A model generated the notes under the pieces. That model had not been told where the DNA came from. It ran no database searches and saw nothing but the letters and a program-made list of their open reading frames with translations. This document shows, in pieces, positions 34,702 to 55,615 of a stretch of 64,000 bases of DNA (positions are counted from its first letter, which is position 1; each line of letters opens with the position of its first letter). Source of the stretch: Siphonodentalium dalli (Eukaryota; Mollusca; Scaphopoda; Gadilida; Siphonodentaliidae); NCBI GenBank assembly GCA_032622095.1, contig CP136066.1, positions 134,571,917 through 134,635,916 on the forward strand, in the 5' to 3' direction. The position numbers and the translations under genes are program-made.

Positions 34702-35035
34702 GCAATTGTATATACCAGATCCAGATGTATGGGTGGAATATTATAAACAAAATAGTGAAAAAAATAAAAATGCAAATTATTTTCCCTATAAAAAGATAAA
34801 TGATACTAAAGTTACATTACAATTGGAAACAGTCTCTCCAACTCAACAAATCGTAGAACAAGCAAAAGACGAAATTATCCGTGAAGAAGAAAAAATGCCT
34901 AACAAAAAAAAATATAAAAGGAAAAAGAAAATAAAGAGAAATCATAACAAAAGAAAACCTCAAGGAAACAAGAAGAAGAAGAAGCGAACGAGAAAAGTGA
35001 TATCTAAAAAATACAAGGATATATTCACAAAATAA
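34694..35035 (+). CDS. Lys-rich core-like protein
   Basis: 113 residues. The N-terminal half has LYIPDPDVWVEYYKQ and VSPTQQIVEQAKDEI (residues ~5-20 and ~49-65). The C-terminal 45 residues are almost entirely Lys/Arg/Asn. The basic tail suggests condensation of encapsidated DNA, as adenovirus core proteins do, or a scaffold role; this is inferred. Position between the penton-like and major capsid genes fits a virion component. The long minus-strand frame opposite is a shadow of the Lys codons. Confidence 0.7.
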   Translation: MSKQLYIPDPDVWVEYYKQNSEKNKNANYFPYKKINDTKVTLQLETVSPTQQIVEQAKDEIIREEEKMPNKKKYKRKKKIKRNHNKRKPQGNKKKKKRTRKVISKKYKDIFTK

Positions 35036-35042
35036 AAAAACA

Positions 35043-36359: not shown

Positions 36360-36396
36360 AGGATTGAGTATTTTTTTTGTGCAAATTAGTTGAGAG

Positions 36397-37071
36397 ATGG
36401 CTAGTATGATAGAAACATATGAAAAGTCCGAACAAGGGACTCTGGTACCATTTATATCACCAGCTAATATTCTAATATGCGGACCAACACAAAGTGGAAA
36501 AACAAATTTAGTGAAAAGAATTATCGAAAACAAAAATGGAATGTTCAATCAAAATATTCAATCAGTTATGTTATGTTACACTGCATGGCAAAAAAATTAT
36601 GAAAATCTAAATGTTGAATATCATAAAGGAATTCCATCTGCAAATACTATTGAAGAGTGGGCCATTGTCAACACTTCTCACAAAATAATAGTTCTAGATG
36701 ATTTAATGGAAGAAGTAATACAAAATTATGACATGCTGCAGTTATTCACAGTCAAATGTCATCACTCAGATATAAATGTTATCTTTTTAGTTCAGAATAT
36801 ATTTCCAAAAGGTAAATATATGAGATCAATATCATTGAATTCACAATACATAATTTTATTTCAATTTCTTAGAGACAAGCAACAGGTTAAATTGCTATCA
36901 AGACAAATTTCTCCAGAAAAAATTATATATTTTTTGGATGCATACGAAAAAGCAACTTCTAAAAAATTTGGTTATTTACTTATTGATATACACCCCCATT
37001 CTAACAAGCTCTACCAATTGAGGTCTCAAATTCTACCGGGGGAAGACTTGATAATATACACACCTCAATAA
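36397..37071 (+). CDS. ATP: A32/FtsK-HerA-type packaging ATPase
   Basis: 224 residues. Walker A GPTQSGKT at residues 29-36, Walker B KIIVLDDLM at about 98-106, and a downstream VQN motif (about 132) that matches the sensor glutamine/asparagine of the HerA-FtsK clade. It would pump the genome into capsids made by the neighbouring PY protein. The end overlaps the ATG of the next small gene (37071). The frame is intact, in contrast with integrase and polymerase. Confidence 0.93.
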   Translation: MASMIETYEKSEQGTLVPFISPANILICGPTQSGKTNLVKRIIENKNGMFNQNIQSVMLCYTAWQKNYENLNVEYHKGIPSANTIEEWAIVNTSHKIIVLDDLMEEVIQNYDMLQLFTVKCHHSDINVIFLVQNIFPKGKYMRSISLNSQYIILFQFLRDKQQVKLLSRQISPEKIIYFLDAYEKATSKKFGYLLIDIHPHSNKLYQLRSQILPGEDLIIYTPQ

Positions 37072-37424
37072 TGGAAATAGAAATGCAAAATTTGTTTAAT
37101 ATCTTCCAAAATTTCAATAAAAAGAAGCAAAGACAGGTATTCAAATATATAACAATACCACAAATTGAATTAATAACAGAAGCTATATACAACGTGCTTA
37201 GTGGAACGGTTCCTATAACAGATAAACAGTTAAATTTATTTTAAAAATATAAAAAAAATTTACGAAATATTATCACAAATAATATAAGTATTAAAAAAAG
37301 AAGAAATCTACTTCAAAATTGTTCGAAAGTTATACAGGATATACTTGGTGTATCTATTTCTTATCTTAATAATGGCCAAGGAAATGATTCTGATACCGAA
37401 AAAGAAATATCAAAATTTACTTGA
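37071..37424 (+). pseudogene. Small basic Polinton protein with in-frame stop
   Basis: From the ATG at 37071 the frame runs 57 codons, reaches TAA at 37242-37244, then stays open in the same frame to 37424. Both sides look like one protein: a helix-rich N-part (EAIYNVLSGTVPITDKQ), and after the stop a Lys/Arg-rich part with KKRRNLLQ and a hydrophobic segment. Polintons commonly carry a small protein of this type after the ATPase, as I recall. I therefore read the TAA as a nonsense mutation. Its 3' end overlaps the next gene in another frame. Confidence 0.6.
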
Positions 37425-37623
37425 TACAATAAATGAAAATGAAAAACAAAGTAAATCAATAGAAAAGATGAAAGGTGAGTGTACACCAGAAATAACAAAT
37501 GAGGTCAGTACGCAAACTGAAGAAATTAAACCACTACCAAATCAAAACAATAAGACCAAAGTTGTTACAAAAAGGAAATGGGATTCATTCAAAATCGTAG
37601 GAAAAAGCAAAAAAAAGAAATGA
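37372..37623 (+). CDS. Small Lys-rich Polinton protein
   Basis: 83 residues if started at 37372 (MAKEMILIPKKKYQNLL); the upstream ATG at 37345 would add nine hydrophobic residues and is less likely. The N-terminus is amphipathic, the middle is Glu/Thr/Asn-rich and disordered, and the C-terminus ends in a basic KIVGKSKKKK tail that may act as a nuclear or DNA-binding signal. It is the last gene before the polymerase promoter. No family is assigned with confidence; it may be a minor virion or core protein. Confidence 0.6.
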   Translation: MAKEMILIPKKKYQNLLDTINENEKQSKSIEKMKGECTPEITNEVSTQTEEIKPLPNQNNKTKVVTKRKWDSFKIVGKSKKKK

Positions 37624-38143
37624 ATATCTCAATATAATACATATACTGTGTGAAAACACCATATGCTGTGTCTAAACTTTTATAGAGATAACCTATATTT
37701 TTATTATATGTCAGATCTATGTCAGATATGTATATTTATATGTCACAAGTCTAATATAGATCGTGTGAAATCACCTTATGCTACTTCTAATCTATATAAA
37801 TATAAATAACAAAAACTAAGTATATTCAACAATCAAAAATGACAGATGCATGGTAAAACTTTATTAAGAAATAGAGAATAGCCATATCTCAATGTAATAC
37901 ATATACTGTGTGAAAACACCATATGCTGTGTCTAAACTTTTATAGAGATAACCTATATTTTTATTATATGTCAGATCTATGTCAGATATGTATATTTGTA
38001 TGTCACAAGTCTAATATAGATCGTGTGAAATCACCTTATGCTACTTCTAATCTATATAAATATAAATAACAAAAACTAAGTATATTCAACAATAAAAAAA
38101 TGGCAGATGCATGGCAAAACTTTATTCAGGAATTGGACAATTC
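37624..38143. repeat. 260 bp tandem duplication of the polymerase promoter and start
   Basis: Units 37624-37883 and 37884-38143 are almost identical ('gtgtgaaaacaccatatgct', 'tgtcagatctatgtcagata'). The second unit contains the functional ATG at 38100. The first contains a decayed version at 37840 that runs into a stop after four codons. So the promoter was duplicated together with the first dozen codons. Confidence 0.92.
38053..38062 (+). promoter_or_regulatory. TATA-like box before polymerase B
   Basis: TATATAAATA lies about 40 bases upstream of the ATG at 38100. The same box is present in the duplicated unit near 37793, giving two potential start sites. It matches the box before the first gene at 32521. 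Confidence 0.55.
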
Positions 38144-39437
38144 ACAATACCTCGACCAACAATTTGCTGATATATCAGAAGATGATTTCTTCAATCTTAT
38201 CAGTAACACAAGATCACTCAATATGTCAACAACCTGTGAAGAATGCCACAAACAATTCTCATCCGTGTCAAATTTAAAACGACACAAACTATCTCATACT
38301 GATACGAGGTACACATGCGAAGAATGTGAAAAACAATTCAAGAACAAACAGACACTCCGGAATCATAAAAAAAATAAACACACAAATATAGAAGTCAATC
38401 AGAATATGGAAAATAATATTGATAATAATATTATTGAAAACGTTGATGATGACAATGATGAAACAGACAACAATAACCAAAATTCCTCAAATCAACCTGT
38501 TCAAACAGCATTGAATGCTAGTGCATTGGTATTCGATATAAGACCACAGAATGAGCCAGAGAAACAAGATATTCTAACGTTTTTTGCTAACAATTATGAC
38601 AATGCAAAAAAAGTTGTTAGTGATGCACTGTTATTACATGGAGTTAAATGGTGGTTCAATACAGAGATTAGACTTTTCAAGGAAAATGAGGATGAGAGAA
38701 AAGAAATGACTTCTCATTTTAGAAGTAACACATATCGTTATACTACAATTAATGAATTTTCAGAGGACTATTTTGACGATGCATTTCACAAAATGTTTCA
38801 ATCATTCGATAATTTCGTTCATCTCGGAAGTGGATGGCGAATTGATGCTGTGATAAAAATGGATGTTAATATGGCCAAGTATACCCCATTATCAGGATCT
38901 TCATTTATAGCAACACCCAAAAAGCTATTACGGACTAATTCATTAACAAATGTTGTGAATATGGATGATAAATGTTTTATGTACTCTATATTAGTTTCAT
39001 TGTATCCCTGTAACACAAATAAATGTTCAGTTCAAACACTAATTCCTTATGAACAAGAGTTGAATTTTACAGGATTACATTTTCCAATCAGTGTCAAAAA
39101 TGTTATAAAATTTGAGTCACAAAACAATATCTCTGTAAATGTTTTTGGATACGAGGATAAAACTATTTTCCCATTGTATGTTAGCCACAAAAGTGAAGTA
39201 AGACATCATGCCAATTTATTATATATCAAAGAGGGTGAAAAATCCCATTATATATGTATTAGGGACCTTAATCGATTTCTATATGTATTCAATAAATCAT
39301 GTGGACAAAAAAAATACTATTGTCCTTATTGTTTACATGGATTTATTCGTGATGATCTACTTCAGAAACACAAACCTCAATGTCTAACTCATGGAATTCA
39401 ACACACAACACTTCCAAAAGAGGAGAAAAATATGTGA
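38100..39437 (+). CDS. POLB: Protein-primed DNA polymerase B, N-terminal part
   Basis: 445 codons ending at TGA 39435. Two C2H2 zinc fingers (C46, C49, H62, H66 and C73, C76, H89, H94) are followed by an acidic Asn/Asp linker and then the conserved N-terminal region of animal Polinton polymerases: a VKWWFNTEIRLFKE-type segment, GSGWRIDAVIKMDVNMAKY, and a C-x2-C...H/C finger close to the end. The protein must continue into the exonuclease domain, which begins at once in the -1 frame, so a one-base break lies in the A-run at about 39425-39430. The shared promoter duplication lies just upstream. Confidence 0.92.
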   Translation: MADAWQNFIQELDNSQYLDQQFADISEDDFFNLISNTRSLNMSTTCEECHKQFSSVSNLKRHKLSHTDTRYTCEECEKQFKNKQTLRNHKKNKHTNIEVNQNMENNIDNNIIENVDDDNDETDNNNQNSSNQPVQTALNASALVFDIRPQNEPEKQDILTFFANNYDNAKKVVSDALLLHGVKWWFNTEIRLFKENEDERKEMTSHFRSNTYRYTTINEFSEDYFDDAFHKMFQSFDNFVHLGSGWRIDAVIKMDVNMAKYTPLSGSSFIATPKKLLRTNSLTNVVNMDDKCFMYSILVSLYPCNTNKCSVQTLIPYEQELNFTGLHFPISVKNVIKFESQNNISVNVFGYEDKTIFPLYVSHKSEVRHHANLLYIKEGEKSHYICIRDLNRFLYVFNKSCGQKKYYCPYCLHGFIRDDLLQKHKPQCLTHGIQHTTLPKEEKNM

Positions 39438-41932
39438 AATTTACCGAATACCACAAACAAGCACCAATTCCATTCATATTGTATGCCGATATGGAAACTA
39501 TAAATAAACCTGTAGACACATGCTATCCTGATAAAGAAACATCTTATTCAACAAATTATCAACAAATGTTACCTTGTAGCTTTGGAATAAAACGAATATG
39601 TTGTCTCGATGAAAAATATAACAAACGTACTCAATTATTCAAGGCTAGAAATGGTGTAATAGAGAAATTTATAGAAACACTATTTGAGGAAGAAAAGGAA
39701 ATAGCGGAAATTATTAATCAGGACAAACCAATTATAATGAACGAAAATGATAGAAGAATGTACATTATTGCAAATAAGTGTTATATGTGTAATGGTAATT
39801 TTTATTTGAATAACAAAAAATGTAGAGACCATTGTCATTTTACTCAAAAATATCTCGGGGCATCTTGTAACAGGTGTAATTTACAAAGAAAAAAAGCTCC
39901 AAACTTTATACCAGTTATTTTTCATGGTGGATCCAACTTTGATTTCCATTTGGTAATGCAAGAACTAGGAAAATTCAAAGACTCTAAAATAACATGCATC
40001 GCAAAATCAATGGAAAAATATATTACATTTACCTTTGGAAAATTTCGATTTCTTGACAGTTATCAATTTCTTAGTGCATCATTAGATACATTGGTGAGTA
40101 ATTTGAGAAACAACGATCTCTATGATTTCAAATATCTCAAAGATGAAGGTGTATTGAATGACAAACAATTGAAATTGTTATGTGAGAAAGGAATATATCC
40201 ATATGATTATATCACAACTTTTGATAAATTCACTGAAACACAACTTCCTCCTAAGAATTGTTTTTACAACAAACTTAAAGGTAGACATATAACCGATTTG
40301 GAATATGAACAAGCCAATAATGTTTGGACTTGTTTTAATATTCAAAATTTGGGTGATTACCATGATATTTATTTGAGATCTGATGTATGTTTATTAGCAT
40401 GTGTTTTCGAACAATTTAGAGAACTTTGTTTGAAACACTATGAATTGGATCCAGCTCATTTTATTACTTTGCCAGGATTTTCATGGTCTGCTATGCTTAA
40501 AAAAACTGGTATCACCCTACAGCTGATAACAGATATTGATCAATTTCTAATGATAGAAAAGGGTATGAGAGGTGGAATATGCTCGATATATACCAGATTA
40601 GCGAATGCCAACAACCCATACATCCCAGAAACTTTTGATCCCACAAAACCTAATAGTTATATAGTGAACTGGGATTGTAACGCTCTGTATGCTAGAGCAA
40701 TGATGGAACCAATGCCAAAGGGAAATTTCAGCTTTTTGAACACAGAAGAAATAGCAAATTTTGACATAACAAATATTACGAGTGACTCAGAATGTGGGTA
40801 TATATTAGAAGTTGATTTGGAATATCCAGAAGATATACACAACATGCATAATGATTATCCATTGGCCCCGGAAAAAAGAAAATGTGAATTAATTGAACTA
40901 TCACCATACAGTCAAAAAATGTTGGAACAAATTTATAAAAATAAAAAAAAACCATTTAGTCAAAAACTTGTTCAAACTCTATATAATAAGGAGAAGTATA
41001 TTATCCATTACAGAAATTTACAACTTTATATGCAATTGGGAATGAAATGTATTAAAATTCACAGAGTGCTTAAATTTGATCAATCAACTTGGTTGTCTGT
41101 TTATATCAATCTAAATGCAAAAATGCGATCAGAAGCTACAAACAATTTTGATAAATCACTATTTAAACTCCTTTCTAACTCTATATTTGGGAAGTCGATG
41201 CAAAATTGTCGTAAATATAAGAATATTTCTATATATAGTGACGAAAACAAATTTGCAAAAAGTGTTAAAAAGAGCAGTTTTCAAACTTTTACAATTTTCA
41301 ACGAAAATTTAGTTGGTGTAGAAAGTCAAATGATAAATATAACTCTTGACAAACCAATATATATAGGTTTTTCAATTTTAGATATATCAAAAACATTTAT
41401 GTATTCTTTCCACTATAATTACATAAAACCGAAATTTGACAACGTTAAACTGTTAATGACTGACACAGATTCATTTTGTTATCATATATATACCGATGAT
41501 ATTTATGAGGAAATTGGTATTAGAAAGGATTTGTTTGATACTTCAAATTATCCATCAAACCACTCAATCTATAATAATTCAAATAAATCAATTCCAGGAT
41601 TATTCAAGGATGAATGTGCCTCGGTACCTATTACACAATTTGTTGGTTTGAGACCTAAGTTATATAGTATGAAAATGTCTAATGAACAGGAAAGACTAAG
41701 AGCTAAGGGTGTCAACAGTATTAGTTTAAAACATGAATATTATATGAATTGTTTAAAATCAGATTATAATTTACTGTATTGTTCATCAAATAATATCACA
41801 AATTATAAACATAATTTGTTCGGTACTACAATTAATAAAATAGGACTTTCTGCCTATTGTGATAAGAGGTGGTGGAAAACAAACGGCGTTGATTCATATG
41901 CATATGGACATTACAATATTTATAATGTATAA
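39424..41932 (+). CDS. POLB: Protein-primed DNA polymerase B, exonuclease and polymerase domains
   Basis: Open from before 39424 to TAA at 41932; the upstream ATG at 39380 overlaps the N-terminal ORF and is not a real start. Exonuclease I YADMET, exonuclease II FHGGSNFDFHL and exonuclease III DYHDIYLRSDVCLL are all present. Between Exo I and II there is a C-x2-C...CRDHCHF...C-x2-C segment resembling the endonuclease VII zinc site often embedded in Polinton polymerases. Polymerase motifs follow: A (NWDCNALYARAM, ~residue 430 from 39380), B (LSNSIFGKSMQN, ~600) and C (MTDTDSF, D695 and D697), then a KLYSM thumb motif. All catalytic residues look intact. It replicates the element from a protein-primed terminus. 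It ends just before a convergent minus-strand gene. Confidence 0.95.
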
Positions 41933-42110
41933 TTTATTGTTAGTTGCAGGAAAAAAAAGAGTATTGATTTATATGTTATTGTTGTTGTTGACACTATTAG
42001 GTATTAAGAAAAATTAATATATTATTTATGAATATGTATTTGTATGTATTGATATATTTGTGTATTGCTAATATTATATGAATTTTTGTGTAATAAATAT
42101 ATTTACCATT
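41933..42110. terminator. Convergent 3' ends and poly(A) signal
   Basis: AATAAA on the plus strand at about 42092 follows the polymerase stop by ~160 bases and lies just before the minus-strand gene's stop at 42111. On the minus strand ATTAAA overlaps that stop. The two transcripts therefore probably overlap tail to tail. Confidence 0.5.
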
Positions 42111-42140
42111 TTAATTCATTCTTCGTCTTCTCTTTAGTGT
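42111..42140 (-). CDS. Terminal exon 6 of the minus-strand cargo gene
   Basis: 30 nt coding to TAA, acceptor 'attacag'. Encodes TLKRRRRMN, a basic cluster fitting a nuclear localisation signal. Confidence 0.7.
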   Translation of the reverse strand, partial: TLKRRRRMN

Positions 42141-45100
42141 CTGTAATAGATGGGTGTAATAATTGGTTCAATAAGAATATAGTCACAGTTCTATTTTATA
42201 TTTCACAATAAAATATACCTATCAATATTTCCAGTATAAATACTGTGAAATTTTTCCATTTCCAATATATATAACACAAATTTTAATAATAGTTAAAGAC
42301 ACATATTGGTTTTATGGTGGGTTTGACTCACACCCTTTAAAATTTATACAACAGAAGTTAGTATTTTAACAACACCCAATACAAGTATCTTTTAACTAAT
42401 AATTTCGGTAGTTCTATTACTTACTGAAAACAGATTTTCGTCCTGAGTATCGACCATTTTTCTCTTTCCCCCCTGTAAAATATACAAAATGAATTCAAGT
42501 GTGTGTTATTCTTGTATATACAGTTTCCAAAAATTACCAAAGTATATTCAGATGATAATTATTACAAAGTTGTGGATCTTTATAGATATTTATTGTGAAA
42601 TACATAATAGTGAATGTTTACTTTATAGCAACTCGCTTTCCCTCCTTATTCGGGTATAGACAATTAACATAAAGAGGTCTATCTACAGTGTAATATATTA
42701 TTTTCTCACTAATACTTCTATAGTATTTTATATATAAATAGTGAATATATTATAAATAAAATATACCTCATTTTCGTCGTCGTCGTTGTCGATAACCACT
42801 ATTCTTCTATCCTATAAAAAATAGTAAAATTGAAGTAAGATATTAAACAAGAAAAAGAAACTTCGCACTATTATCTGTCGTTTTGAAAATATCTGAATAG
42901 GTTACAATATTTTCTTTTTATATTTAAGTATTATATTTGTAAATAACCAAAAAAGTTACCTGGCTATCAGCACCTCCTGGAGCTGGACTATCAGGGGATA
43001 GTGGACCCGCAACGGCGGCACTTGCTGCTGAAGCACTGGGGTGGGGTGGTATGGCTGCAGACGATGGACCCGCAATGGCGACACTTGCTACTGAAGCACT
43101 GGGGCGGGGTGGTATGGCTGCGTAGGACGGACCCGCAATGGTAGCACTTGCTGCTGAATCACTGGGGCGGGTTGGTATGGCTGCGTAAGATGGACCCGCA
43201 ATGGTGGCACTTGCTGCTGAATCACTGAGGTTGGGTGGTATAGCTGCTGCGACATTGTGGTGGGGTGGTGGTCTATGCATAATGGGTGCATCATCATCAT
43301 CCTGAAAATATTATATTAAAATTAATTTAAATATATATATAAATATCGAATGAGTCTATTCAACAAGAGCTAATTAGATCAATCACATAACACACACTGT
43401 TCACTTGGTACTCCATTTAATTTAGACAATTGTGTTTTTCAAAATAGTAACCTCATCCTATTTTATCAAATTCGAAGTGATAAAGCGAAATAGAGACTAC
43501 TTATATTGTTTAACGACTGAACTAAATATTTTACTGATACATACCAGGTTGATTGCCACTCCATATTTCTGTCTAATCTGTTGAAAGACAAAAAAAACAT
43601 ATTATTATACTATTATCTTAAATGAAAAGATACTGTGATCCAAAGGATTAGTTATACAAAGAGTAAACTCCAAAATAGCTGTTGGTGGCTATATATATAT
43701 ATTTTTTTTTTAACCAAATAAACCCAAAATCACTCGTTGCTCCATTACAAATTTATATTAATCCTACTTGTACCCCGCGTATTCGGATTTAGTCATTCAT
43801 AGAGTAAAATCCGAAATCGCTTCTGATAGACATGGTTTTTTCTCTCCCGAATAATGTCAAAATAACTTATTCCAATCTACATGTTCAATGTCAATATCCA
43901 TGAGAAATTTCCTAATTATCTGACCGAAGGTACGAGCTATAGTCTGTGCCAAATAAGTTAGTTATGAAAAGAGTAAAATCCAAGATTGTTGCTAGCGACC
44001 ATGTTTTTTAGCGAAATAACCCCAAAATTACCCCTTTCCATCTACATATTAATATTAACATCCATGACAATTTTCATTATAATCAGACAAGTAGTACGAC
44101 CTGTAGTCCACGTATATCACTATTTATTAAAAAATAGGGGTACGTGTTGATTACGATCTGGGTATCATTCGTGGTATGGGTACGTTCTGATTTCGAATTC
44201 ATATTTTATACCACTTCCGGTATGAATTAGTTCCGACTCACATTCCATATTTTGTATATTATTATTTCCGGAAAACAATGTCCAGCATGTTTTTTAAGGA
44301 CGACCAGCTGGGCGCAGCCCAGCCGCGCATATGTTGCGCAGCAACATATGCGCAGGTCGTCCTTATACTAAGTTCGCTTTCGAACATGGGCGCCGCCATC
44401 TTGAATTAAGGGCACCGCCATCTTGGATTTGAGGCGCCGCCATCTTGAAACGTCATTGCAATTAAATTAAAACTACAAAATGTTACTTTTCATATAGCAG
44501 AACATAACAGTATGCATTGCGTTAAGGCATTAGGCCTACATGCTTTATTCTTTGAACAGTAATCATTACTTAAATCATAAATATTGTCGACCGGACTCGG
44601 GTTGCTATGCCATTCGGGAAATGGCGGAAATTTACGTAAAACTGCAAATTTTCCTTAGCCACCTCGCGAAAACAACATAATTCATATCGTAAATATCTTG
44701 AACGTTTATTATATAACTAAATAAACTTTTCTGTAGTTTAGTAAATTAGTAGAAGCATGTTCACGTAAACTGTTAGGTTACGTCATATGTTGTATCCAAA
44801 GCGACGTCATATTGGCACGCGCATTTTCCCGCGAAAGATATTGACGTTTTGACAGGGACGCGACAAAGCACACAAAGCAGGCATAATGTTGGCATGGTTC
44901 GCATTAGATTTGATTGGGTTGACGTTGTTAGGCCTACATAGTGCATGGCTCCGAGTCCGCGCTGGTATAAATGTAGCGCCATGCAATTGTATAATCAAAC
45001 TGACAAAATCCCAACCTATAAAATCACTATAGAATTTGTACAGGTACAAACAAAACATGTTCTTGGAAATTGAATGTTCTTCCTTACTTATATTCTAATG

Positions 45101-48100
45101 ATTTGGGTTGTGATTTGAAACAAACAAACAACCCAAATTATGAGGGGGTAAATCCAAGTTCTCACTCATAATAACCCCAATTTCCAACCAAGGCCAATGG
45201 TTGTGGAGGCGAGTACAACTAATATTTCATCCAAATTGAGGATGGGCATAATGTGCCAGTCAAAAAAATGGCCCCGGGGAGCCACGATCGAAAGGCTGGA
45301 AGATACATGTATGAGTATAATATGATAATTATGAGTTACAGACCCAATCCCCCTACCACAAGCAACCAACTTCGTGTACGTAATTGGTTATAAGAAATAT
45401 TTATAGTTAATTAAATCTTGACGTTCATATAAGTCAACACATATTAGTCTGAGTATAGTGCAGGTACGTCGTGACTGCACGGTCGTCCTTTTTTACATGG
45501 ATGTCAATGCCATAATTTCTTGTTTATTATATTATTAGTATTATTGAGGATTTGTTATTGTTGGGACGAAACTGAATGTGATTGGAACGTTTCGTTTAAG
45601 GATCAATTGTATTGTGTTAACTCATATGCTATTGAGGCTAAAAAGGTTGTTTGGGCAGCTGAGCTGCACGTTCGTAATTCATATTCTGTAAATATTGACA
45701 TTGAAAAATGGCCCATACTGAGACTGATTGACATAAGCCATAGTGAGAACATCGATTGTGTGAATTGCCCGTCTACTGTAACATATACGGTATACATTAA
45801 TAACCTTCGATGTCCAATAGGTAAGTGGTTAAAATATTTATATTGGAACACAAGAGGTGATAATAAAATATTTTATGAATAAAAAACCACCAATATAATT
45901 TAAAACAAATATTTATTAATTTAATACAATATCTAGCGTTTGACTGTAGTAAATATTAAAAACACACCCAAAATATTGGACAGATTTGTCTTAAACTATG
46001 AACTTCCTGTCTTGACGGCAAAATATTTTTGAAGTGACAATAGGTGACAAGAAATTATTGAATTTGTTTTTTATTCAAAAATGAGTTAAATTTTATTAGA
46101 GCTAATAAAATTGAAAACCATTTAGCCACGAGGTAAGAAAATATTTGTCAAATTCCAATTAAATGCTGGTTGATACATTCTTGTGGAACAACTTCGAGGT
46201 TAGAATCCTAACACAATCAACTAAAACACCAAAACCGAAATCTGTCTAGCAAATGTATAATTGTTTATTTGAAGTCTCTACTTGGTAATACCTAAACACA
46301 ATATATTTCATACTGTGTGATTACAGATTTCACTGTTTATTCTATTTAAGTTAACTGTCTTTTGCTTTTACACTGTATAACAATAAGAAACCTAGTGTAT
46401 TTTCAAGATATTATTCCTACCCACCTCCCCTGAAACTTAATTATATCCTTCTATTATAGCCACACCACAAGAATCAGTTGTCGCAACAACACAAGAATCA
46501 GTGGTCGTAACAACACAAGAATCAGTCGTCGCAACAACAACACAAGAAGCAGTGGCAACAACAACGACAACTGGTATGTTTTATCTAGAAGAAGAAGCTC
46601 TCAAACTTATTCGGTGTGATAAACTAAAGATATATGTTTTGTTAAGTTCCAATTGATCCAGGTGTTATCATCATGCATTAACTTTATAACCTTGTGGTGA
46701 CTCCAGTGGCATTGTTTAATACACACACACTGAGGCCTGTACACGGGAGGTCAGGATATCTGTGTGCGATCGGAGGTTGTACCATACCCACACCCCCTGA
46801 AACTTAATTATAACCTTCTATTATAGCTACAACACAAGAATCAGTCGTCGCTACAACACAAGAAGCAGTCGCAACAACAACGACAGCTGATATGTTTTAT
46901 CTAGAAGAACCTCTCAAACTTATTCGGTGTGATAAACTAATAATATATGTTTTGTTAAGTTCCAAATCAGTATTTTCAAATACAGAGGGATATAAGTATA
47001 TAGAGTTGCACCCCTTTATATTGTATCTATAGATATTACAGTGCAGGAACCAATTCTGGTTGTAGACGCACTGCTCCAGGTGTTATCATGATCTAATAAC
47101 TTTATAACCTTGTGGTGACTTCAGTAGCATTCGCGATGGGAGGGGGGGTACCGTACCCACCCCCCTGAAACTTAATTATAACCTTCTATTATAGCTACAA
47201 CACAAGATGCAGTCGTTGCAACAACACAAGAAGCAGTTGCAACAACAACGACAGCTGGTATGTTTTATTAGAAGAAGCTCTCAAACTTATTCGGTGTGAT
47301 AAACTAATGATATATATTTTGTTAAGTTCCAAATCAGTATTTTATCATAATCTAATAACTTTATAACCCTGTGGTGACTCCAATAGCATTCTTTAATATG
47401 CACACACCGAGCCGTGTACACAGAGGGTTAGGTGTTAAAGTCCGTGCGTGATTGGACAGTGTATGGTATCCACAACATACCTGGATGAGTGTTGTAATAT
47501 GATGAAGTTTGCGTTGTATCTTTATTCAGTGATCTCGAATGAGAACTTTTCAGCCTGACAAACTTGTTATCTGACCGACTTCTGAATTTTAACACAATAC
47601 CCTGACCAGGTTGCAATCCTTGGTTTGCTATTACGAGAGACAAGTACACTACCTCTTGGCTATCAACTTCCCTTACATTGAAAACAATTTGATTTCTGTT
47701 GGTAGTTTATCAGTAAAATATTGAATTCATGTGGTGATAACTCCATATTTTATAAATTCACCATTAAACTGTCTATTGACATTGAACAGATTTAGAAGAA
47801 ACCTAGTGTATTGTCAGGTGTGGTGAGGTGTTAATATCTGTGTGCGATCGGAGGGGGTGTATCATACCCATCCCCCCTCAAACTTAATTATATCCTTCTA
47901 TTATAGCCACAACACAGGAATCAGTTGTTGCAACAACACAAGAAGCAGTCTCAACAACAACAACAGCTGGTATGTTTTATCTAGAAGAAGCTCTCAAACT
48001 TATTCGGTGTGATAAACTAATGATATATTTTTTGTTAAGTTCCAAATCAGTATTTTATCATAATCTAATAACTGTATAACCCTGTGGTGACTCCAGTAGC

Positions 48101-50114
48101 ATTCTTTAATACGAACACACAGACCGGTGTACACAGAGGGTCAGGTAATAATGTCTGTGCGTGCTTGGACAGTGTATGGTATCCACAACATACCTGGATG
48201 AGTGTTGTAATAGGGTGAAGTTTGCGTTGTATCTTTATTCAGTGATCTCGAATGAGACTTTTCAGCCTGATAAACTTGTTATCTGACCGACTTCCTGTAA
48301 AATATTCAATTCAGTTGGTGATAACTCCATATTTTATAAATTCACCTTTAAACTGTATATTGACATTAAACAGATTTAGAAGAAGCCTAGTGTATTGTCC
48401 ACCCACACCCCTGAAACTTAATTATATTCTTCTATTATAGGTACAACTCAAGAGGCAGTTGTCACAGAGACAACAATGACCGCTGGTATGTTTATTAAGA
48501 AGAAGCTCTCAAACTTATTCATAAACTCTCATCAGAGGTAAAATTATTTACAGAGATAGATAACTAGATAGAGTTATCCTCTCTTGCATTGAAAAAACAT
48601 CTGATTTCTGTTGAGAGTTTATCAGTAAAATATTAAATTGAAATACGAAAACTTCTGATTTCTGTTGTAACTGTGTATTCCAATAACTATTTTACTGCCT
48701 GTTTATACCACTATTTGGCAAAAAAAAAAATTTGTCAACTTTAAATTTTTTTTTTTAATTTTCTGCTTTTGTGTAATATATAGATTGGTTTTGTTGTAAA
48801 GGGAATACCATATATAACTATATACTTTTTATTGAAACCAGATCTATAATATCTACGACCACCTCAATATTTACTATTAATTACAACCCTTTTTGTTGAA
48901 TTTTTTACAGGTTGGTAAATTTATCCATAATATTCTCAATTTCAGAAAGAGGAGGAATTAGGGAAAATATCTATTCTGGTAAGTTGAATATTCTCCATAT
49001 AATTAACTACTTAAATAAGTTTGAATTGATTTCCTATTTCAGATTTTGTATTGAAAATAAGTTTAGTTTATATTTAAATCTTCTTTCAGCAACAGAGTCT
49101 TTATTGAAATATATTGGCTCCACAGTCGGGGCTGGTGCGGGGAGTTTGCTGTTGGGGTTGATGGGGTGGTGGTGTAGACGAAGATTACAAACCAACAGAC
49201 AGCATCGAAGACTGTTACAAACCTCCAGTTTGCACACAACAACATTTTCGGCATCAGACTCTCCCACTGATATGGACCAAACTGAGGTGACTTCCATCGA
49301 TTTGGGAATATCCTCAGATTTAGAGACTGTAACTGCTGCGGATGCTTCCACCGCAGTTACATTCTCTAACTCTGAGTATTCTCCCAGTTCTACTGATATC
49401 ATCTCACTTTGTTCCATAACAGAGGGAGAGTCGGTCGTACGATGCTCCGATTCAGAGGATAAAACTTTGTCGGCTGAGCCCACATCAATTATATCCTCTA
49501 TTTCGGAGTACAATGCGACTGAGGCAATTTCTTCAACACCCGTAAAAAAATCGGGAAGAAAGATTAACCCTCCAGTTAAGTATACACCTTAAATATTGAT
49601 CAAGGTGAATACATAATGATACTCTATCCGATCGGACAGTCTTCTTTAAAAATACTTTCTTTATCCAAATTTTGTTCAACAATAAAAAATTTGACTCATA
49701 TCCAATTTGATCCGTATCTTCGACAAATAACAAACTTAAAAAGAATTGATTCAATTCAATTTTTCTTCCTTCAAAGCTGTATTAGTTTAGGAGCGTCTGA
49801 TTGGATTGAGTATCGTTAAACTTTCCATAATTGAAATTATTTGACTAGTATAGACTTACCTGTTTTTCCATTTCTTCATCAAACTTTTTGATGTCATTGA
49901 AATAGGTGTAGATATCATCTTTGTTTTCAGCCAGGTGCTCAAACTCATTGTGTGTTAGCGGCATGAATGAAGACGTGTTGTTACTTGTTAATGACAGCAA
50001 ATTTTTCCCTTTGTAACGTTTTAATGTTACAGCTTTGGTGGATCCTAAGGATGCCTTTAAAACCAAGTTTTCTTTAAAGTAGGGATCTCGCACAAATTGC
50101 ATTCTTGTATACAT
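42111..50114 (-). CDS. Spliced Polinton cargo gene: PC4-like domain, P/S/A repeats, basic tail
   Basis: Six minus-strand coding exons, all phase 0: 50114-49860, 43577-43545, 43301-42960, 42811-42767, 42472-42425 and 42140-42111 (TAA at 42111). They total 753 nt, 250 residues. Exon 1 encodes a domain with AVTLKRYKGKNLLSL and FMPLTHNEFEHLAENKDDI whose layout fits PC4/SUB1. Exon 3 encodes an acidic DDDD start and four ~22-residue repeats (SAASATIAGPSYAAIP). Exons 4-5 are acidic then basic, and exon 6 ends LKRRRRMN, a likely nuclear signal. A nuclear single-stranded-DNA or transcription role is inferred. The 6.3 kb first intron contains another gene on the opposite strand. A further 5' exon is likely at 51487-51517. 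Confidence 0.75.
42425..42472 (-). CDS. Exon 5 of the minus-strand cargo gene
   Basis: 48 nt (GGKRKMVDTQDENLFS), phase 0, acceptor 'tttacag', donor 'gtaagt'. Confidence 0.7.
42767..42811 (-). CDS. Exon 4 of the minus-strand cargo gene
   Basis: 45 nt (DRRIVVIDNDDDENE), phase 0, acceptor 'ttatag', donor 'gtatat'. The short hydrophobic core next to acidic residues (IVVID plus D/E) resembles a SUMO-interaction motif. Confidence 0.7.
42960..43301 (-). CDS. Exon 3, Pro/Ser/Ala repeat, of the minus-strand cargo gene
   Basis: 342 nt, phase 0, acceptor 'tttcag', donor 'gtaact'. After DDDDAPIMHRPPPHH it encodes four tandem copies of a ~22-residue unit (66 bp) based on SDSAASATIAGPSYAAIP. The copies differ by few bases, so they expanded recently and stayed in frame. 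Predicted disordered. Confidence 0.8.
43545..43577 (-). CDS. Exon 2 of the minus-strand cargo gene
   Basis: 33 nt micro-exon (IRQKYGVAINL), phase 0, acceptor 'caacag', donor 'gtatgt'. Confidence 0.65.
43640..44110. repeat. Host-type ~200 bp repeats inside the Polinton
   Basis: Units with 'caaagagtaaa', 'ccaaaatagctgttggtggc' and later 'gaaaagagtaaaatccaaga' belong to the family seen at 6600-8135 and 14230-15010. Their presence in the long intron shows traffic between host repeats and the element. Confidence 0.65.
44297..45490. mobile_element. ~1.2 kb insertion bounded by 10 bp inverted ends
   Basis: The left end AAGGACGACC and right end GGTCGTCCTT are exact complements, each in a T-run. A third copy at 44356-44365 makes the first 69 bases a compound hairpin with inner palindromes 'gctgggcgcagcccagc' and 'gcgcatatgttgc/gcaacatatgcgc'. 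It is more GC-rich than its surroundings. It ends seven bases before the ATG at 45497. No coding gene was found inside (44448-45480 shows only short incidental frames). Confidence 0.55.
44393..44447. promoter_or_regulatory. Three YY1-type CCGCCATCTTG sites, 22 bp apart
   Basis: Identical 11 bp copies start at 44393, 44415 and 44437, exactly two helical turns apart. CCGCCATCTTG contains the YY1 core (reverse complement AAGATGGCGG). They lie ~1.1 kb upstream of the glycoprotein gene. A 'ggtataaatg' TATA-like box follows at about 44964. Confidence 0.6.
45520..45820 (+). CDS. Glycoprotein exon 1: leader and Cys-containing ectodomain
   Basis: The open frame starts at TTG 45520 and ends at donor 'gtaagt' (45821), phase 1. 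After the hydrophobic stretch come ETECDWN, QLYCVN and IDCVNCPS, plus a final LRCPIG, giving five to six ectodomain cysteines. The true initiation codon is uncertain. Confidence 0.7.
45520..49592 (+). CDS. Spliced type I membrane glycoprotein gene carried by the Polinton
   Basis: Exons at 45520-45820, 46460-46573, 46827-46889, 47195-47257, 47907-47969, 48441-48485, 48946-48978 and 49090-49592, all joined in phase 1. The product has a hydrophobic leader-like start (FIILLVLLRICYC), a ~85-residue ectodomain with cysteines and an LRR-like WPILRLIDIS segment, a Thr/Gln/Ser/Val mucin-like stalk from cassette exons, one transmembrane helix (STVGAGAGSLLLGLMGWW), a basic CRRRL stop-transfer and a ~140-residue Ser/Thr/acidic tail. 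Cell-surface location is inferred. No in-frame ATG precedes the leader; the nearby ATG at 45497 is in another frame, so the start is either in an upstream exon or broken. It lies in an intron of the opposite-strand gene. Confidence 0.75.
46460..46573 (+). CDS. Mucin-like cassette exon 1
   Basis: 114 nt, phase 1-1, acceptor 'attatag', donor 'gtatgt'. Encodes three to four copies of TTQESVVA and ends in a Thr run. Potential O-glycosylation stalk. It is the longest cassette. Confidence 0.8.
46827..46889 (+). CDS. Mucin-like cassette exon 2, donor mutated
   Basis: 63 nt with acceptor 'attatag' and the same TTQESVVATTQEAVATTTT pattern. Where the others read CTG|gtatgt it reads CTG|atatgt, so the GT donor is lost. 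The exon is probably skipped; because cassettes are phase 1-1, skipping does not shift the frame. Confidence 0.65.
47195..47257 (+). CDS. Mucin-like cassette exon 3
   Basis: 63 nt, phase 1-1, acceptor 'attatag', donor 'gtatgt'. Thr/Gln/Ala/Val repeat (TTQDAVVATTQEAVATTTTA). Confidence 0.8.
47907..47969 (+). CDS. Mucin-like cassette exon 4
   Basis: 63 nt, phase 1-1, acceptor 'attatag', donor 'gtatgt', with TTQESVVATTQEAVSTTTTA. Confidence 0.8.
48441..48485 (+). CDS. Mucin-like cassette exon 5 (diverged)
   Basis: 45 nt, phase 1-1, acceptor 'attatag', donor 'gtatgt'. TTQEAVVTETTMTA, shorter and more diverged than the others. Confidence 0.75.
48946..48978 (+). CDS. Glycoprotein juxtamembrane micro-exon
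   Basis: 33 nt, acceptor 'tttcag', donor 'gtaagt', phase 1-1 (ERGGIRENIYS). Confidence 0.7.
49090..49592 (+). CDS. Glycoprotein last exon: transmembrane helix and cytoplasmic tail
   Basis: 503 nt from acceptor 'tttcag' to TAA at 49590-49592. Encodes the TM helix, CRRRLQTNRQHRRLLQ and a Ser/Thr/Asp/Glu-rich tail ending VKYTP. An AATAAA signal follows at 49681. Confidence 0.82.
49681..49686 (+). terminator. Poly(A) signal AATAAA after the glycoprotein gene
   Basis: It lies 89 bases past the stop codon and before the convergent first exon of the minus-strand gene. Confidence 0.5.
49860..50114 (-). CDS. Exon 1 (PC4-like domain) of the minus-strand cargo gene
   Basis: 255 nt between acceptor 'ttgcag' and donor 'gtaagt'. 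It begins MYTRMQFVRDPYFKENLVLK. The open frame carries on upstream of the acceptor, but the acceptor and the candidate 5' exon argue that translation starts here or further upstream. The PC4 resemblance rests on a beta-strand 'KRYKGKNLLSL', a Ser/Thr-rich turn, then 'PLTHNEFEHL'. Confidence 0.75.
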
Positions 50115-50549
50115 CTGCAAGTATAGATTATTAGTTTGATAGATTGAATTGTATTTGAACATCCTACTCAATAAGATGTTTGTTAATACTTTAAGGATTT
50201 GGTATTCTCTGACATATATTCAATTTGAAATTAGATTTTCAATTGTATTTGATCATCCTAATGGGTGAGATGTTTCATATTACTTGAAGGATATTTTTGG
50301 ATTTGTTTACCTTTTGGTGATCAATGACTTAAACTTTTTTTGTGATCGCTGATATATCCATTGATTCATCTATGCTTGTGAGAAATTAATATAGAGTTCA
50401 ATCCCTTGGATGCCCTTACAGCATGATATTAATGTGTCATATTTAATACTGTGAGATATCTGGAGGAGTTATATCTTTCTATTTGATTTTTAAGGGTTTA
50501 AAGGTGCACACAATTCAAATGTGAATTCTCTTGTTTATATTATTTTCTA

Positions 50550-53100
50550 TGGTGTATTGAGCAGAACAGATCTCAATACCTTAATCGACCTGATCATTTG
50601 ATATTACACTGTTTTTTTGTTTTTTTAGATTCCTCTTTCAAATACAATAAATAATAGTATTCCATTTAATCTGATAATTCCAATGACCTGAACAGCATAT
50701 TTCACTAAGAGATAGAGTTATTGCCCTTCCACAACAAAATTAATTTTAGAACAGAAACATTTATTCAACCTGATCAGTTGATATTTCCTTGTTTTAGAGG
50801 TTCTTTTCAAATGGTATGGAACATATTGTATATGCTTTGGAAAAGGGAGCAAACATATGGAAGAATATAGAACAGCTGTGGTCTTGGGATTGTTTACCAA
50901 GTGAAAGATTTCTCCCTTGTGAATCCAGATTGGATTTAACAGATAGAGTTATTCCTCTTCCATAGACTTTGATAATTTCAAAACAGAAATAATTTTCCTA
51001 TTTATTCGATCTGATCAGTTGTAATGTAGAACATGTTGTATATACTTTGGAAGAGGAATTATGGATGTATATAAAACACACATGGTCTTAGATTGTCTAC
51101 CAAGCGAAGGATTTCACACTTGTGCCCCTATTGGATATAAGAGAGAGATATGTTATGGAGCTTCCTTTCAAATGGTATAGAACATATTGTATATACTTTG
51201 GAAGAGGAACCAAAAATATGGAAGAATATGAAATATATATGGTCTTGGATTGTCTAGCAAGTGGAAGATTTTCCCACTTGTGAACCCTGATTGGATCCAA
51301 GAGATAGAATTATTCCACCTCTATTCTATTTTTTTGGTATTGATTTACTATTAATTAGAAATATTCCATTCTTATATGGGGGGGGGGGGGAGGGGGTAGG
51401 GGGTGTTAGAATAATAAGAAGGGTTTGATTAAAGATAGGATATATTCTAAAGAGTAATAGTTGAAGATATAAATATTAGTACTTACGTTTGTTGGTTGTT
51501 GATTTCCTTCTTTTTTCCTGTATTATTCTGAATGATCAGAGCATAATATAGTTGCCTATTTTTTCTTGTCTTTTATACCATTTTTTTAATCAGCTCACAC
51601 CTTGTTCATGACAAAATCCATATCTTTTTACCGGTGCTTTCTCACACTTGCATTTACCTCATGACTTGAACATTTGTTTTTTTCACATAATATGTCATAC
51701 ATATTTCTGGGTCATAGTGACTCCTTTCTATTTTGGTAAGTGACAGTGACCTTCTTACGATTTTCATATTTTTACTGTTTGGTGTTAAGCATTAAATTTC
51801 ATATTTTGTAAAATAAGGTCTGAAAAGGGAAATGTTGTAGCATCCGCTTGGTATCCATCATTCATATTCAGCATACAATTGATACCTCTCTGCTCTAGTC
51901 AATATTTAACCTCTGAATAATATGATACCTCATACCTGATTATATTACCTCAACATATTTTGTTTTATTATTATATCTTATTGCGTCCATATTTAGATTG
52001 ATTTAATATTCAGAGCTATTTTTTGCTCTAAGTATTGATTACAGCTTCACTTAAGTTATCGATTGACCACGTTGTATTATACACAACATATCCCATATTA
52101 TATACCATTTGAAAGAGGTATCAGTTAATATATATTCCACCAGAATACCAAACAGCTGTGTGCTTGGATGGTGCATTCTTGTCAACTCAGTTTGGATCAG
52201 TTTTCAAACTAAGATTTAGAGTTATTCATCTTCAATTGAGTATAATAGACTTTGATCAAAGTTAATCACAGAACACGCCTCATTACCTCAACAGAAACAA
52301 TTTCCCATGAAATCTGATTAGTTGATATTACACTGTCTTCTTCTTTTATTTGGTATATAATTTGGAATATATTGTGTATAATATGATGTTGTGGTTCGAA
52401 CCACCAGAATATAGAACAACATATGGTCTTATATTGTCTACCAAGTGATAGAGATTCTCATGATTAATTGTAAGATTTCCCCCATTGTCAAGTCAGAATG
52501 GATCAGAATTCGAACTAAGAGATAGAGTTATCCCTCTTCCATTTTAGTATGATCACTGTACATACTTCTGTTCATCAACAGAAGCAATTGTTCTTGTTTA
52601 TTCTACCTTATCAGTTGATATATACTGTTTTGAGGATTCCTCTTTCAAATGGTTTATATTATAGAACATTATATATATAATTTGGTATAGGAACCAAACA
52701 TTCCACAAGAATATGGAATAGTTGTTGTCTTGGTTTGTCTACCAAGCTCAGATTAATTCCAAGATTTCCCTCTTGTCAAACCAGATTATAAACTAAGAGA
52801 TATAGTTATTCTTCTTCCATTGAGTATATTAGCTTTGATCCAAAGAAACAATTTTCCCTTTTTATCCAACCTGATTAGTTGTTATCACACTGTTTTATAG
52901 ATTCCTTTGATGTGTTATACCAGAACACGGTACAGCTGTGGTCTTGGATTGTCTACCAAGCGTTGAGAATTGCTCAGAATTCATCCTAAGAGTTATTCCT
53001 CTTCCATTGAGTTTAATAGACTGATCGGTTAATATTACACTGTTTTTGGAACTTCCTTCTTTCAAATAGTATGTAATATGAGATATGATGTATTTGTTCT
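50550..53100. repeat. Diverged ~200-330 bp tandem repeats, right half of Polinton
   Basis: Recurring blocks are 'cctgatcagttgatatt', 'cctctttcaaatggtat', 'aacatattgtatatactttg', 'ggtcttggattgtctaccaa' and 'gagatagagttattcctctt', seen six or more times. No open frame of note. A G-run with possible quadruplex potential is at 51379-51402. Confidence 0.75.
51487..51517 (-). CDS. Possible upstream exon of the minus-strand cargo gene
   Basis: 31 nt between acceptor 'atacag' and donor 'gtaagt'. If spliced to 50114 it is either leader or adds a short polar stretch ahead of the exon 1 methionine. Coding status is uncertain. Confidence 0.4.
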
Positions 53101-55143
53101 GGTGTTTCGATAATTAAGTGATCCTTTAATCTTTGAGTTATTTATTTGCTGAAGTCACATATTCAGTTAATAACATAAGAGCCGTCCATTGACAAGTTTT
53201 TTCAGATATCTTTAAACTCCCCTAATAAGGTGAGAAAATTTGTGATTTGTATAGGTAAGGGGATCATAAAATGTTATTTTCATATTCATATTCTTTATAA
53301 TATTATCATATCTATAATCAAGGACCAGTGTAGAGATTTCAATTTATTATAGGTGGTTTCTGTATTGGGTTAAAAGAACTGTTATCAGGGATATATTATA
53401 TTATCTTAGGTTCAAGTTTCACACTAGGATTATACATCTATGATTATTCAACACATTGGTCTTTTGTAAAATTATTTTATTGATTATTAACACTGTTATA
53501 ATATTTGGCTAAAATTTTATTAATTTGTTGTTATATACTGGTTTTGTAGAATTTATCTCCTGACAATACTCTTTGAACTGGTCCTTGATGATTGTGTTTA
53601 TTAAACATCATTTTAAAATTATATATTTAGGCAATCATCCTGTTATTTTTGTTGATTTTTCAGGAATTATAACTATTTGACCATTTGTGATATTCTCAAC
53701 TTTGTTTTTTTTATACTTCATTATTAATCATGACAAATTCTATTTTTTTAAAATATTATTGCGGCAATCATTGTAAATATTGTTGATTTTGCGGAAATTT
53801 TATATTTGACATTTACATTGTTGATTTTTGTTCTCAAAATAAATATAATTTTTATATAAATTGTTATATTGACATTTCCAATTTGATTTAAGTTTTTGGA
53901 ACAATTATATAACTTGGTGTGGTCTACATATTATAATCGTGGTTGGTTATTTTGTTTTGATGTATATAGGTATTTATATGTATTTCCATATGGTTATTTC
54001 CCAGGTATGGAAAGTGATATTCTATATATTAGGTATTGTTCTGAGGATATTGTTTGGTGTGTCCTAAGATTTCAATCTGGTATAGGTTTAACCTAGGAAT
54101 ATAACCTGCATGAACTTACTGACCTATTCTCACAGCTGTTATTTCTCAGCTCTAATTGTTTGGGGTGTCCTAAGATTTCAAATGAATAGTGTGTAGGTTT
54201 AACACAGGAAGATAACCTGCCTGAACTTACTGAGATATTCTCTCAGCTGTTATTTCTCAGCTATAATTCTTATCTGTAATACATAGCATTCCTGGTCTGC
54301 TGCATTGTGGATAGGTATACATTTTTTCTTTTAGAATTTGGTAAGTTTTGGTTTCAATTTAAATTAATTGAAATAAAGTTATACAATAGGTCCTGAGGTC
54401 CTGAAATTCCTGTACATAACTATAGTATTAATTAATTTTCTTTAGTCATTCCGTTTGCATGCGCATCAATTCCTTCATAAACTTTGCCAGCTTGTATTCT
54501 ATGATTTTCTGGTCATTTTTTAAAAATCCTTGTCATATTTAGCATGCAGGATTGTAACTTGTTTAACTGCTATTTAGATCCGATTTATTTTGATGGAGTT
54601 ACTGCCCTTTATCGATATGATTAACAGCTGTGATTACTTGCATTTGCTTAGGTCCAATTTGGGAAATTGTGAGTAATTTAAACACTTGGAGATATTATTC
54701 TTATTACAACATTGATTATGGTGGAATCTTGGTCATATTTTCATATTTAATTGTCTATAATAGAATTGTATTGTGGTTTATATCGTCAGTGGTTATTGCG
54801 TGTCGATTGCAGATTAACAGGTTGGTCATATGCTATGTAGGCATATAATTATATGTATCCATACCATGTATGGTAGACATAATGCCACCATTCGGATCAA
54901 CCATTCATCGTTCATCTGTCTGTCTGTTTGTTCGTATACACTTGATATACTATTACATTAGTCAATTACCTTTAGAAATTAATAAGATTTTACATTCGCT
55001 CATATTCATGCCCTATTCAATTCTTTTAACAAAGTAGTTTTGTCCGACTGTGTTCATATTTTGAAAATAGGCTTATCATAATACACACCTCGTCTGCATC
55101 TTTATAATGATTGTGTGTACATATAGGAAAGTATCCCTTATTC
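53101..55143. other. AT-rich right subterminal region of Polinton, no gene
   Basis: It contains a ~105 bp tandem pair at 54055-54270 ('gtgtcctaagatttcaa', 'ataacctgc', 'gctgttatttctcagct'), part of which is inverted relative to 31976-32045. No credible ORF. Confidence 0.6.
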
Positions 55144-55615
55144 ATTTGCATTTGACTATTTGGTGATTGGATACATATCTGGTATAGTTCTCTTTGAACT
55201 ATAATTTGATTTTGAATTTCGTATCCCCACATCCTATATCATGGGATATTGTGGTGGGATATATCATCTGTCGATCAATAACATATATTTGATTACCCCA
55301 CTGACCTACCAGTTTTGATGTATATCTAGATAAGAGGATTCCTTGACCTTGATCCTTTTTTGACCGATATTTGATAAAGAGGATCTTTATAGTTTACTAT
55401 AGGATTGCATGGACTTGATCTGCTGTTTGACCGTGACCTATTATCATAGGTCAGTGTGGGTGTGGGAAACATATCAGCTGCTTATCAGATAAGGTTATCT
55501 TTGACCCCCTGACCTAGATTTTTGATCCCCTTTTGACCGATATTTGAAAAAGGTGATCACCATACTTTACTATGGGGTTGTTGGGCGTTGGCTGTCTGTA
55601 TTTTACACTACTACT
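55144..55615. repeat. Polinton right terminal inverted repeat
   Basis: Reverse complement of 31235-31688. It ends ACACTACTACT, followed directly by TTTAAG. Confidence 0.9.

What the first reader, a model, noticed from the sequence alone, without database searches (positions are those of the whole stretch)
45520..49592. Polinton-borne spliced membrane glycoprotein gene with expandable mucin-like cassette exons
Inside the element bounds lies a plus-strand gene reading as leader, Cys ectodomain, five duplicated phase-1 Thr/Gln exons, TM helix and acidic Ser/Thr tail. Every junction is phase 1, so any number of cassettes can be included without breaking the frame. Polinton core genes are intronless, and a multi-exon surface protein with a variable stalk is unusual cargo. 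It could be a captured host receptor or adhesin, or an envelope-like protein.
Basis: partly seen in the sequence, partly recalled or inferred. Interest (0 to 1): 0.92.

Follow-up and report, generated by a model that had tools for sequence, protein, structure and literature searches.

The report
Polinton-borne spliced surface protein gene
A virus-like mobile element in what looks like a mollusc genome carries a multi-exon gene for a cell-surface-type protein whose outer domain varies far more between element copies than the DNA around it, and related elements carry versions of the same gene.

Summary
The window holds a 24.4-kb Polinton (31235-55615; 94% TIRs, TTTAAG target-site duplication). 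Inside it, on the plus strand, is a gene model: Cys ectodomain exon (E1), five Thr/Gln-rich cassettes, an 11-codon exon, and a TM + acidic Ser/Thr tail exon (T); every junction is phase 1. Other copies in the same 2.2-Gb genome show coding selection (E1 dN/dS 0.12-0.29 for 11 of 12 copies against the window). Six copies read have 3-5 cassettes of varying length. A divergent Polinton has the same layout with four dissimilar phase-1-1 cassettes. A natural single-exon relative (359 aa) carries leader, E1-like domain, stalk, TM, tail and C-terminal motif in one frame, so these parts belong to one protein. E1- or T-like exons follow PolB in 19 of 21 elements with PolB at least 53% identical (17 with E at most 0.01) and in 0 of 31 at 46-50%. 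Unexpectedly, E1 diverges far more than its flanks, at synonymous sites too (one pair: dS 1.3 against 0.008 in PolB), an MHC-like pattern. Corrections: in the window copy a 1.22-kb insertion interrupts the leader, and cassette 2 lacks a GT donor. Splicing is inferred, without RNA evidence; function (surface recognition) is inferred.

The parts
31235..55615 (.). Polinton/Maverick-type element, 24,381 bp, flanked by TTTAAG at 31229-31234 and 55616-55621
   Evidence: inverted arms 31230-31567 and 55283-55620, 94% complementary; ends and duplication read; alignment with a copy on C3 stops at 55615
33133..34023 (+). integrase ORF
   Evidence: Pfam rve E=8.6e-9
35043..36359 (+). major capsid protein ORF
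   Evidence: 214 relatives in the protein collection, some named capsid protein, from Pecten, Pinctada, Mytilus and others; no Pfam match
36397..37071 (+). packaging-type ATPase ORF
   Evidence: weak AAA/A32 matches, best E=0.0014, under the cut-offs
38100..41932 (+). PolB region in two overlapping ORFs (38100-39437, 39380-41932)
   Evidence: name from motif reading and layout (recalled), no Pfam DNA polymerase match at E<=1; copies have open frames up to 1413 aa
44297..45519 (.). 1,223-bp insertion inside the leader part of exon E1, absent from two sister copies
45520..45820 (+). rest of exon E1: end of leader and Cys ectodomain, 4 Cys invariant in 9 aligned sequences, donor TAG|GTAAGT, phase 1
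46460..46573 (+). stalk cassette 1, 114 nt, phase 1-1
46827..46889 (+). stalk cassette 2, 63 nt, phase 1-1, donor position AT instead of GT
47195..47257 (+). stalk cassette 3, 63 nt, phase 1-1
47907..47969 (+). stalk cassette 4, 63 nt, phase 1-1
48441..48485 (+). stalk cassette 5, 45 nt, phase 1-1
48946..48978 (+). small exon, 33 nt, phase 1-1
49090..49592 (+). exon T: TM helix, basic stretch, acidic Ser/Thr tail, C-terminal STP..KSGR..PP.KYTP motif, stop

Best explanation
The gene encodes the element's own type I membrane surface protein. A signal peptide and a roughly 90-residue four-Cys recognition domain come from exon 1, a Thr-rich stalk from a variable set of symmetric phase-1 cassettes, then a TM helix and a long Ser/Thr-rich cytoplasmic tail. 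Because every junction is phase 1, unequal exchange or exon skipping can change stalk length without breaking the frame. The recognition exon is kept as long-lived divergent versions while flanking and intron DNA is homogenised among copies, as expected if selection favours rare variants of a recognition surface. Shown: layout, phases, variation between copies, clade-wide presence, coding constraint, exon-limited divergence. Inferred: splicing, membrane topology, recognition role, the kind of selection.
For: Phase-1 chain. Other copies: 58 E1 and 76 T matches. E1 dN/dS 0.12-0.29 for 11 of 12 copies against the window; the twelfth differs by one synonymous site. A single-exon relative at C1:272.0 Mb joins leader, E1-like domain, TM and tail in one natural frame (E1-like part against the C8 element E=1e-12; tail against the window E=3e-5); two further single-frame copies cover at least 97% of it at 70-80% identity. 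The C8 element (PolB 65%, MCP 60%) has the same order with four tandem 99-nt phase-1-1 cassettes. In six copies 24 of 25 cassettes are multiples of 3 and 25 of 25 are stop-free. E1- or T-like exons follow PolB in 19 of 21 copies at 53% identity or more, 1 of 1 at 51%, 0 of 31 at 46-50%. E1 hyperdivergence: window against C3 dS 1.3 in E1, 0.17 in T, 0.008 in PolB; four-fold sites 11 of 21 in E1, 8 of 78 in T (p=8e-5); mismatches rise within the exon limits.
Against: No RNA evidence. The window copy lacks a start in frame and one donor. Some of the family matches are weak (two of the 19 rest on E 0.08 and 0.99). Close E1 pairs have nonsynonymous changes at about or above the neutral share (omega 1.2-1.7 in three pairs, dS 0 in a fourth), and 6 of 12 pairs show no E1 excess over flanks. 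One 466-nt cassette is out of frame. No fold could be assigned. Many E1 copies on C5 have no T or core gene nearby in the capped lists.
Confidence: 0.55

Rival explanations
1. A host receptor or adhesin gene, introns included, was captured by an ancestor of this Polinton clade and kept; the protein still works on the host-cell side, for instance as a decoy, an immune modulator or a bar to superinfection.
For: Introns and symmetric phase-1 exons are usual for animal extracellular proteins (recalled) and unusual for Polinton genes (PMC8097293, passages). Three E1 relatives (34-36% identity) at C9:151.5-151.7 Mb have no MCP or PolB match nearby in the capped lists. Nematode Mavericks carry host-type cargo genes (PMC10680173, passage).
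Against: No database relative of E1 although the same collection holds many bivalve Polinton capsids. The single-exon relatives may be the older form. The three C9 loci may be element remnants; their surroundings were read only for 3 kb around one of them.
Confidence: 0.25
2. An attachment or fusion protein on the virion or infected-cell membrane, functionally like the fusogen reported in nematode Mavericks.
For: Surface layout, clade-wide presence, position downstream of PolB, variable outer domain.
Against: The ectodomain is only about 90 residues with no visible fusion-peptide or heptad layout; no sequence match to PDB; no virion is known here.
Confidence: 0.12
3. Chance open frames and repeats in decaying, non-functional element DNA.
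For: The window copy is interrupted and has one broken donor; some other copies carry stops.
Against: dN/dS well under 1 over long distances, third-position excess, same layout in a divergent element, single-frame relatives.
Confidence: 0.04
4. The E1 excess divergence comes from a local mutation or conversion process (short-tract exchange from a diverged pool, or locally raised mutation), not from balancing selection.
For: Synonymous sites are raised as much as the rest; flanks are very similar between copies; copies are mosaics.
Against: The peak coincides with the coding exon, and amino-acid change is constrained.
Confidence: 0.35

Closest known systems
Polinton/Maverick elements of animals
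   Same: TIRs, 6-bp target duplication, integrase, capsid, ATPase, PolB-like gene in one strand block
   Different: Intact vertebrate Mavericks are described as intronless (PMC8097293, passages); here a lineage gene is split into eight exons
Maverick fusogen and cargo genes of nematodes (Widen and colleagues, seen only as a passage of PMC10680173; original paper not read)
   Same: A membrane-type protein or host-type cargo in a Maverick
   Different: No sequence or fold link was found or tested; size, cassette stalk and tail differ
Candidate envelope glycoprotein of an adintovirus (one mention in PMC11071296, passage)
   Same: Suggested surface protein in a related virus group
   Different: No sequence compared here
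MHC-type recognition genes (PMC3720538, abstract and outline only; intron homogenisation recalled)
   Same: Works like: divergence concentrated in the recognition exon with conversion and recombination
   Different: No sequence link; the gene here lies in a mobile element and has a single-domain ectodomain
Leucine-rich-repeat cap domains
   Same: Spacing of Leu/Ile/Pro/Cys in E1 looks like a single capped repeat (impression, recalled)
   Different: 0 of 9 family members match any Pfam model at E<=10

Membership tests
Polinton/Maverick | terminal inverted repeats | tested here: met
   338 nt, 94%
Polinton/Maverick | 6-bp target-site duplication | tested here: met
   TTTAAG on both sides, read
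Polinton/Maverick | retroviral-type integrase | tested here: met
   Pfam rve E=8.6e-9
Polinton/Maverick | double-jelly-roll major capsid protein | tested here: inconclusive
   relatives named capsid protein; fold not tested
Polinton/Maverick | protein-primed DNA polymerase B | tested here: inconclusive
   54 copies in the genome, but no Pfam polymerase match; motif reading only
Polinton/Maverick | A32-type packaging ATPase | tested here: inconclusive
   Pox_A32 E=0.0071, under cut-off
Nematode Maverick fusogen | viral-fusogen fold | not testable with these tools
   single-sequence model of E1 had mean pLDDT 32.7 and was not used; exons were not joined
LRR receptor | LRR or LRRNT/LRRCT profile match | tested here: not met
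   no Pfam match for 9 of 9 E1 members at E<=10, none for the single-exon relative
Mucin-like stalk | Thr/Ser-rich tandem repeats of variable number | tested here: met
   3-5 cassettes in six copies, lengths 45-466 nt; glycosylation not testable
Spliced gene | junction-spanning RNA | not testable with these tools
   no RNA data at hand

The most novel reading that the evidence does not exclude
A clade of mollusc Polintons uses a split, modular surface protein the way vertebrates use MHC exons: introns let the recognition exon persist as old, divergent versions while flanks are homogenised by exchange between element copies, and stalk length is tuned by separately evolved phase-1 cassette arrays. 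A DNA virus-like element would thus have gained spliceosomal introns to run a modular antigen- or receptor-variation system.
Probability: 0.35. Interest if true: 0.93.

Novelty: new variant of a known kind. Interest (0 to 1): 0.84.

Why it matters
Polinton genes are described as intronless, and animal Polintons have few known surface proteins. A clade-wide, intron-split membrane protein with an exon-limited hypervariable ectodomain gives a candidate for how these elements meet cells or each other. The single-exon and multi-exon forms in one genome let intron gain or loss in a virus-like element be dated. The E1 pattern makes a question testable: whether recognition genes of mobile elements evolve under MHC-like balancing selection.

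Tried and rejected
Upstream signal exon: I first took E1 to start at an acceptor at 45538 and looked for a phase-1 exon upstream; sister copies show E1 itself starts with ATG, so that idea was dropped. Ungapped PolB dN/dS (rows L002, L003) was misaligned and is not used; one search replaces it. Cassette counts from the strict motif (3, 3, 2 and 1 for four copies) were too low; searches give 4, 4, 3 and 4. Single-sequence structure prediction of E1 failed (mean pLDDT 32.7) and no fold search was run on it. No relatives of PolB, MCP, the single-exon protein or E1 were confirmed in IMG/VR. E1 has no protein-collection match, no PDB-sequence match, no Pfam match. Rfam gathering search of the window: 0 matches; ARAGORN: 0. 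A genome search with the minus-strand PC4-like exon did not complete.

Rows dropped before counts: I used 56 of 76 T matches (left out 13 opposite-strand echoes and 7 second fragments), 50 of 58 E1 matches (8 second or short pieces), 96 of 98 MCP and 53 of 54 PolB places. In one search I used 83 of 83 E1-like rows, the same 56 T rows, 53 PolB and the first 34 MCP places. The MCP and PolB lists are capped by the tool (96 of 1872 and 53 of 538 candidates scored), so absence of a core gene near a match is weak evidence. In one search, 17 of 30 fetched E1 loci were aligned (copies with poor ends or near-duplicates left out), 12 of 30.

Full report
What is there. The window is C6:134571917-134635916 of a 2.23-Gb genome in 9 contigs. 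An element with 338-nt, 94% inverted ends and a TTTAAG duplication spans 31235-55615. Plus-strand core ORFs fill 32562-41932: integrase (Pfam rve), capsid (214 relatives, best 46% identity, named ones mostly bivalve: Pecten, Pinctada, Mytilus, Mizuhopecten, Argopecten), a weakly matched ATPase and a region that I call PolB from motifs and layout (no Pfam support). The host is therefore probably a mollusc; it is unnamed here.

The gene. Between 45.5 and 49.6 kb lie E1, five cassettes, a 33-nt exon and exon T. The six internal exons are symmetric phase 1-1; 7 of 7 acceptors are AG and 6 of 7 donors GT, the exception being cassette 2 (AT, shared with the C9 copy). E1 in the window has no start in frame: a 1,223-bp insertion, absent from the C3 and C5 copies compared, sits in the leader. 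In sister copies E1 starts with ATG and a hydrophobic leader. Uninterrupted copies exist elsewhere in the genome; none is singled out here.

Is it coding? Against the window, E1 of 11 copies has dN/dS 0.12-0.29 with dS 0.40-1.87, and a twelfth differs by one synonymous site. Differences load on third positions (for C3: 20, 13, 40). Exon T has dN/dS 0.39-0.80 over dS 0.03-0.17 in six copies and about 30% identical relatives over its whole length elsewhere. Four Cys are invariant in nine E1 sequences, down to 23% identity.

One protein. At C1:272.0 Mb a single frame (359 aa from its Met) holds a leader, an E1-like domain with four Cys, a Thr/Ser stalk, a TM helix (hydropathy 2.01), a Ser/Thr tail and the C-terminal motif. 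Its first part matches the E1-like exon of the C8 element (31%, E=1e-12) and its TM/tail start matches window T (29% over 72 aa, E=3e-5). Of 115 matches to it, three (itself included) cover at least 97% in one open frame. This links E1 and T without joining exons.

Cassettes. Six copies carry 5 (window), 5 (C9), 4 (C3), 4 (C5:226.98), 3 (C5:227.28) and 4 (C6:69.95); 25 of 25 are stop-free and 24 of 25 are multiples of 3, the exception being a 466-nt first cassette. Length also varies inside the first cassette by its 24-nt repeat. The divergent C8 element (PolB 65%; MCP 60%) has E1-like exon, four tandem 99-nt phase-1-1 cassettes of different sequence, and T-like exon with a phase-1 acceptor. 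So stalk arrays were amplified separately within one layout.

Distribution. Of 53 PolB places, 21 are at least 53% identical to the window's (the window included); 19 of these are followed on the same strand by an E1- or T-like exon, 17 with a match of E<=0.01 or 126 (the other two, C6:228.97 and C8:104.12, rest on T matches of E=0.08 and 0.99). The one at 51% has E1-like exons; 0 of 31 at 46-50% do, which may reflect sensitivity. In a first tally, 21 of 56 T matches have MCP or PolB upstream within 25 kb, 3 of 56 on the wrong side; for E1 13 of 50 and 0 of 50. Most E1 copies without a listed core gene lie in two stretches of C5; the five such loci compared in detail from that set (L018, L020, L023, L026, L034) share element sequence on both sides of E1.

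The unexpected part. Window and C3 copies are near-identical in PolB (dS 0.008) and over the right 4.3 kb (99.6%), but E1 has dS 1.3 and 74.8% DNA identity, against 92.5% in the next 150 bp of intron. With C5:226.98, PolB dS is 0.018 and E1 dS 0.40. Across 15 comparisons with the C9 copy, E1 is 70-87% identical while upstream and intron stretches are mostly 88-99% (exceptions: two copies whose upstream is unrelated, one whose distal intron is). The mismatch peak falls within the exon. T is not raised: dS 0.17 for C3, 0.05 for C5:262.63. Four-fold sites: 11 of 21 (E1) against 8 of 78 (T) for C3; 5 of 24 against 3 of 83 for C5:262.6 (p=8e-5 and 0.013). Against this: in 6 of 12 pairs E1 shows no significant excess over flanks, mostly close pairs of the C5 set, and in close pairs nonsynonymous changes are not reduced.

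How it most likely works. I read it as the element's own type I surface protein with a variable recognition domain on an adjustable stalk. The E1 pattern resembles MHC-type exons, where recombination homogenises introns while the recognition exon keeps old lineages (recalled; for MHC exon 2 with conversion see PMC3720538, abstract only). A local mutation or short-tract exchange process is the main rival for the pattern, a captured host receptor the main rival for origin. None of splicing, topology or binding was tested.

Literature. Intact vertebrate Mavericks are said to have intronless ORFs (PMC8097293, passages). Nematode Mavericks carry a putative fusogen and host-type cargo (PMC10680173, passage). 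One adintovirus is said to have a candidate envelope glycoprotein (PMC11071296, passage). Polinton-like viruses of protists have group I introns and fibre proteins (PMC12220804, passages). In eight searches of the open-access library I saw no listing of a spliced Polinton membrane gene; subscription journals are not covered.

Noticed in passing
window 49860-50114 (-) and about 42960-43301 (-): Minus-strand exon-like stretches with good splice signals inside the element: one weakly like the PC4 coactivator domain (Pfam E=0.11, below cut-off), one with Ala/Pro-rich 63-nt repeats. The plus-strand gene would lie in an intron of that gene.
   Followed up: partly
window 38100-39437 and 39380-41932 (+): The PolB region is in two overlapping frames here, while several other copies have one longer open frame (up to 1413 aa).
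   Followed up: no
genome C5:223.9-229.3 Mb and 258.9-262.7 Mb: Two stretches of one chromosome hold most of the E1 and T relatives and many MCP copies of this and the 57-61% lineages, whereas the 44-52% MCP lineages are spread over all contigs.
   Followed up: no
genome C1:272007651, C9:8643754, C5:259594494: Single-exon relatives of the whole protein: intron gain or loss, or reverse-copied forms, could be told apart from their surroundings.
   Followed up: partly
genome C9:151538431, C9:151650857, C9:151662589: Three E1 relatives (34-36% to the window, 68-69% to each other's reference) with no listed core gene nearby: possible host genes.
   Followed up: partly
window 37624-38133: A 260-bp tandem duplication at 96% just before the PolB region.
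   Followed up: no
window 8168-8620 and 11093-11404 (-): Exon-like frames that read like a RAD51-family recombinase (recalled from the sequence), so the element may sit near a host repair gene.
   Followed up: no
window 50650-53000: A field of diverged short repeats inside the element with no clear gene.
   Followed up: no
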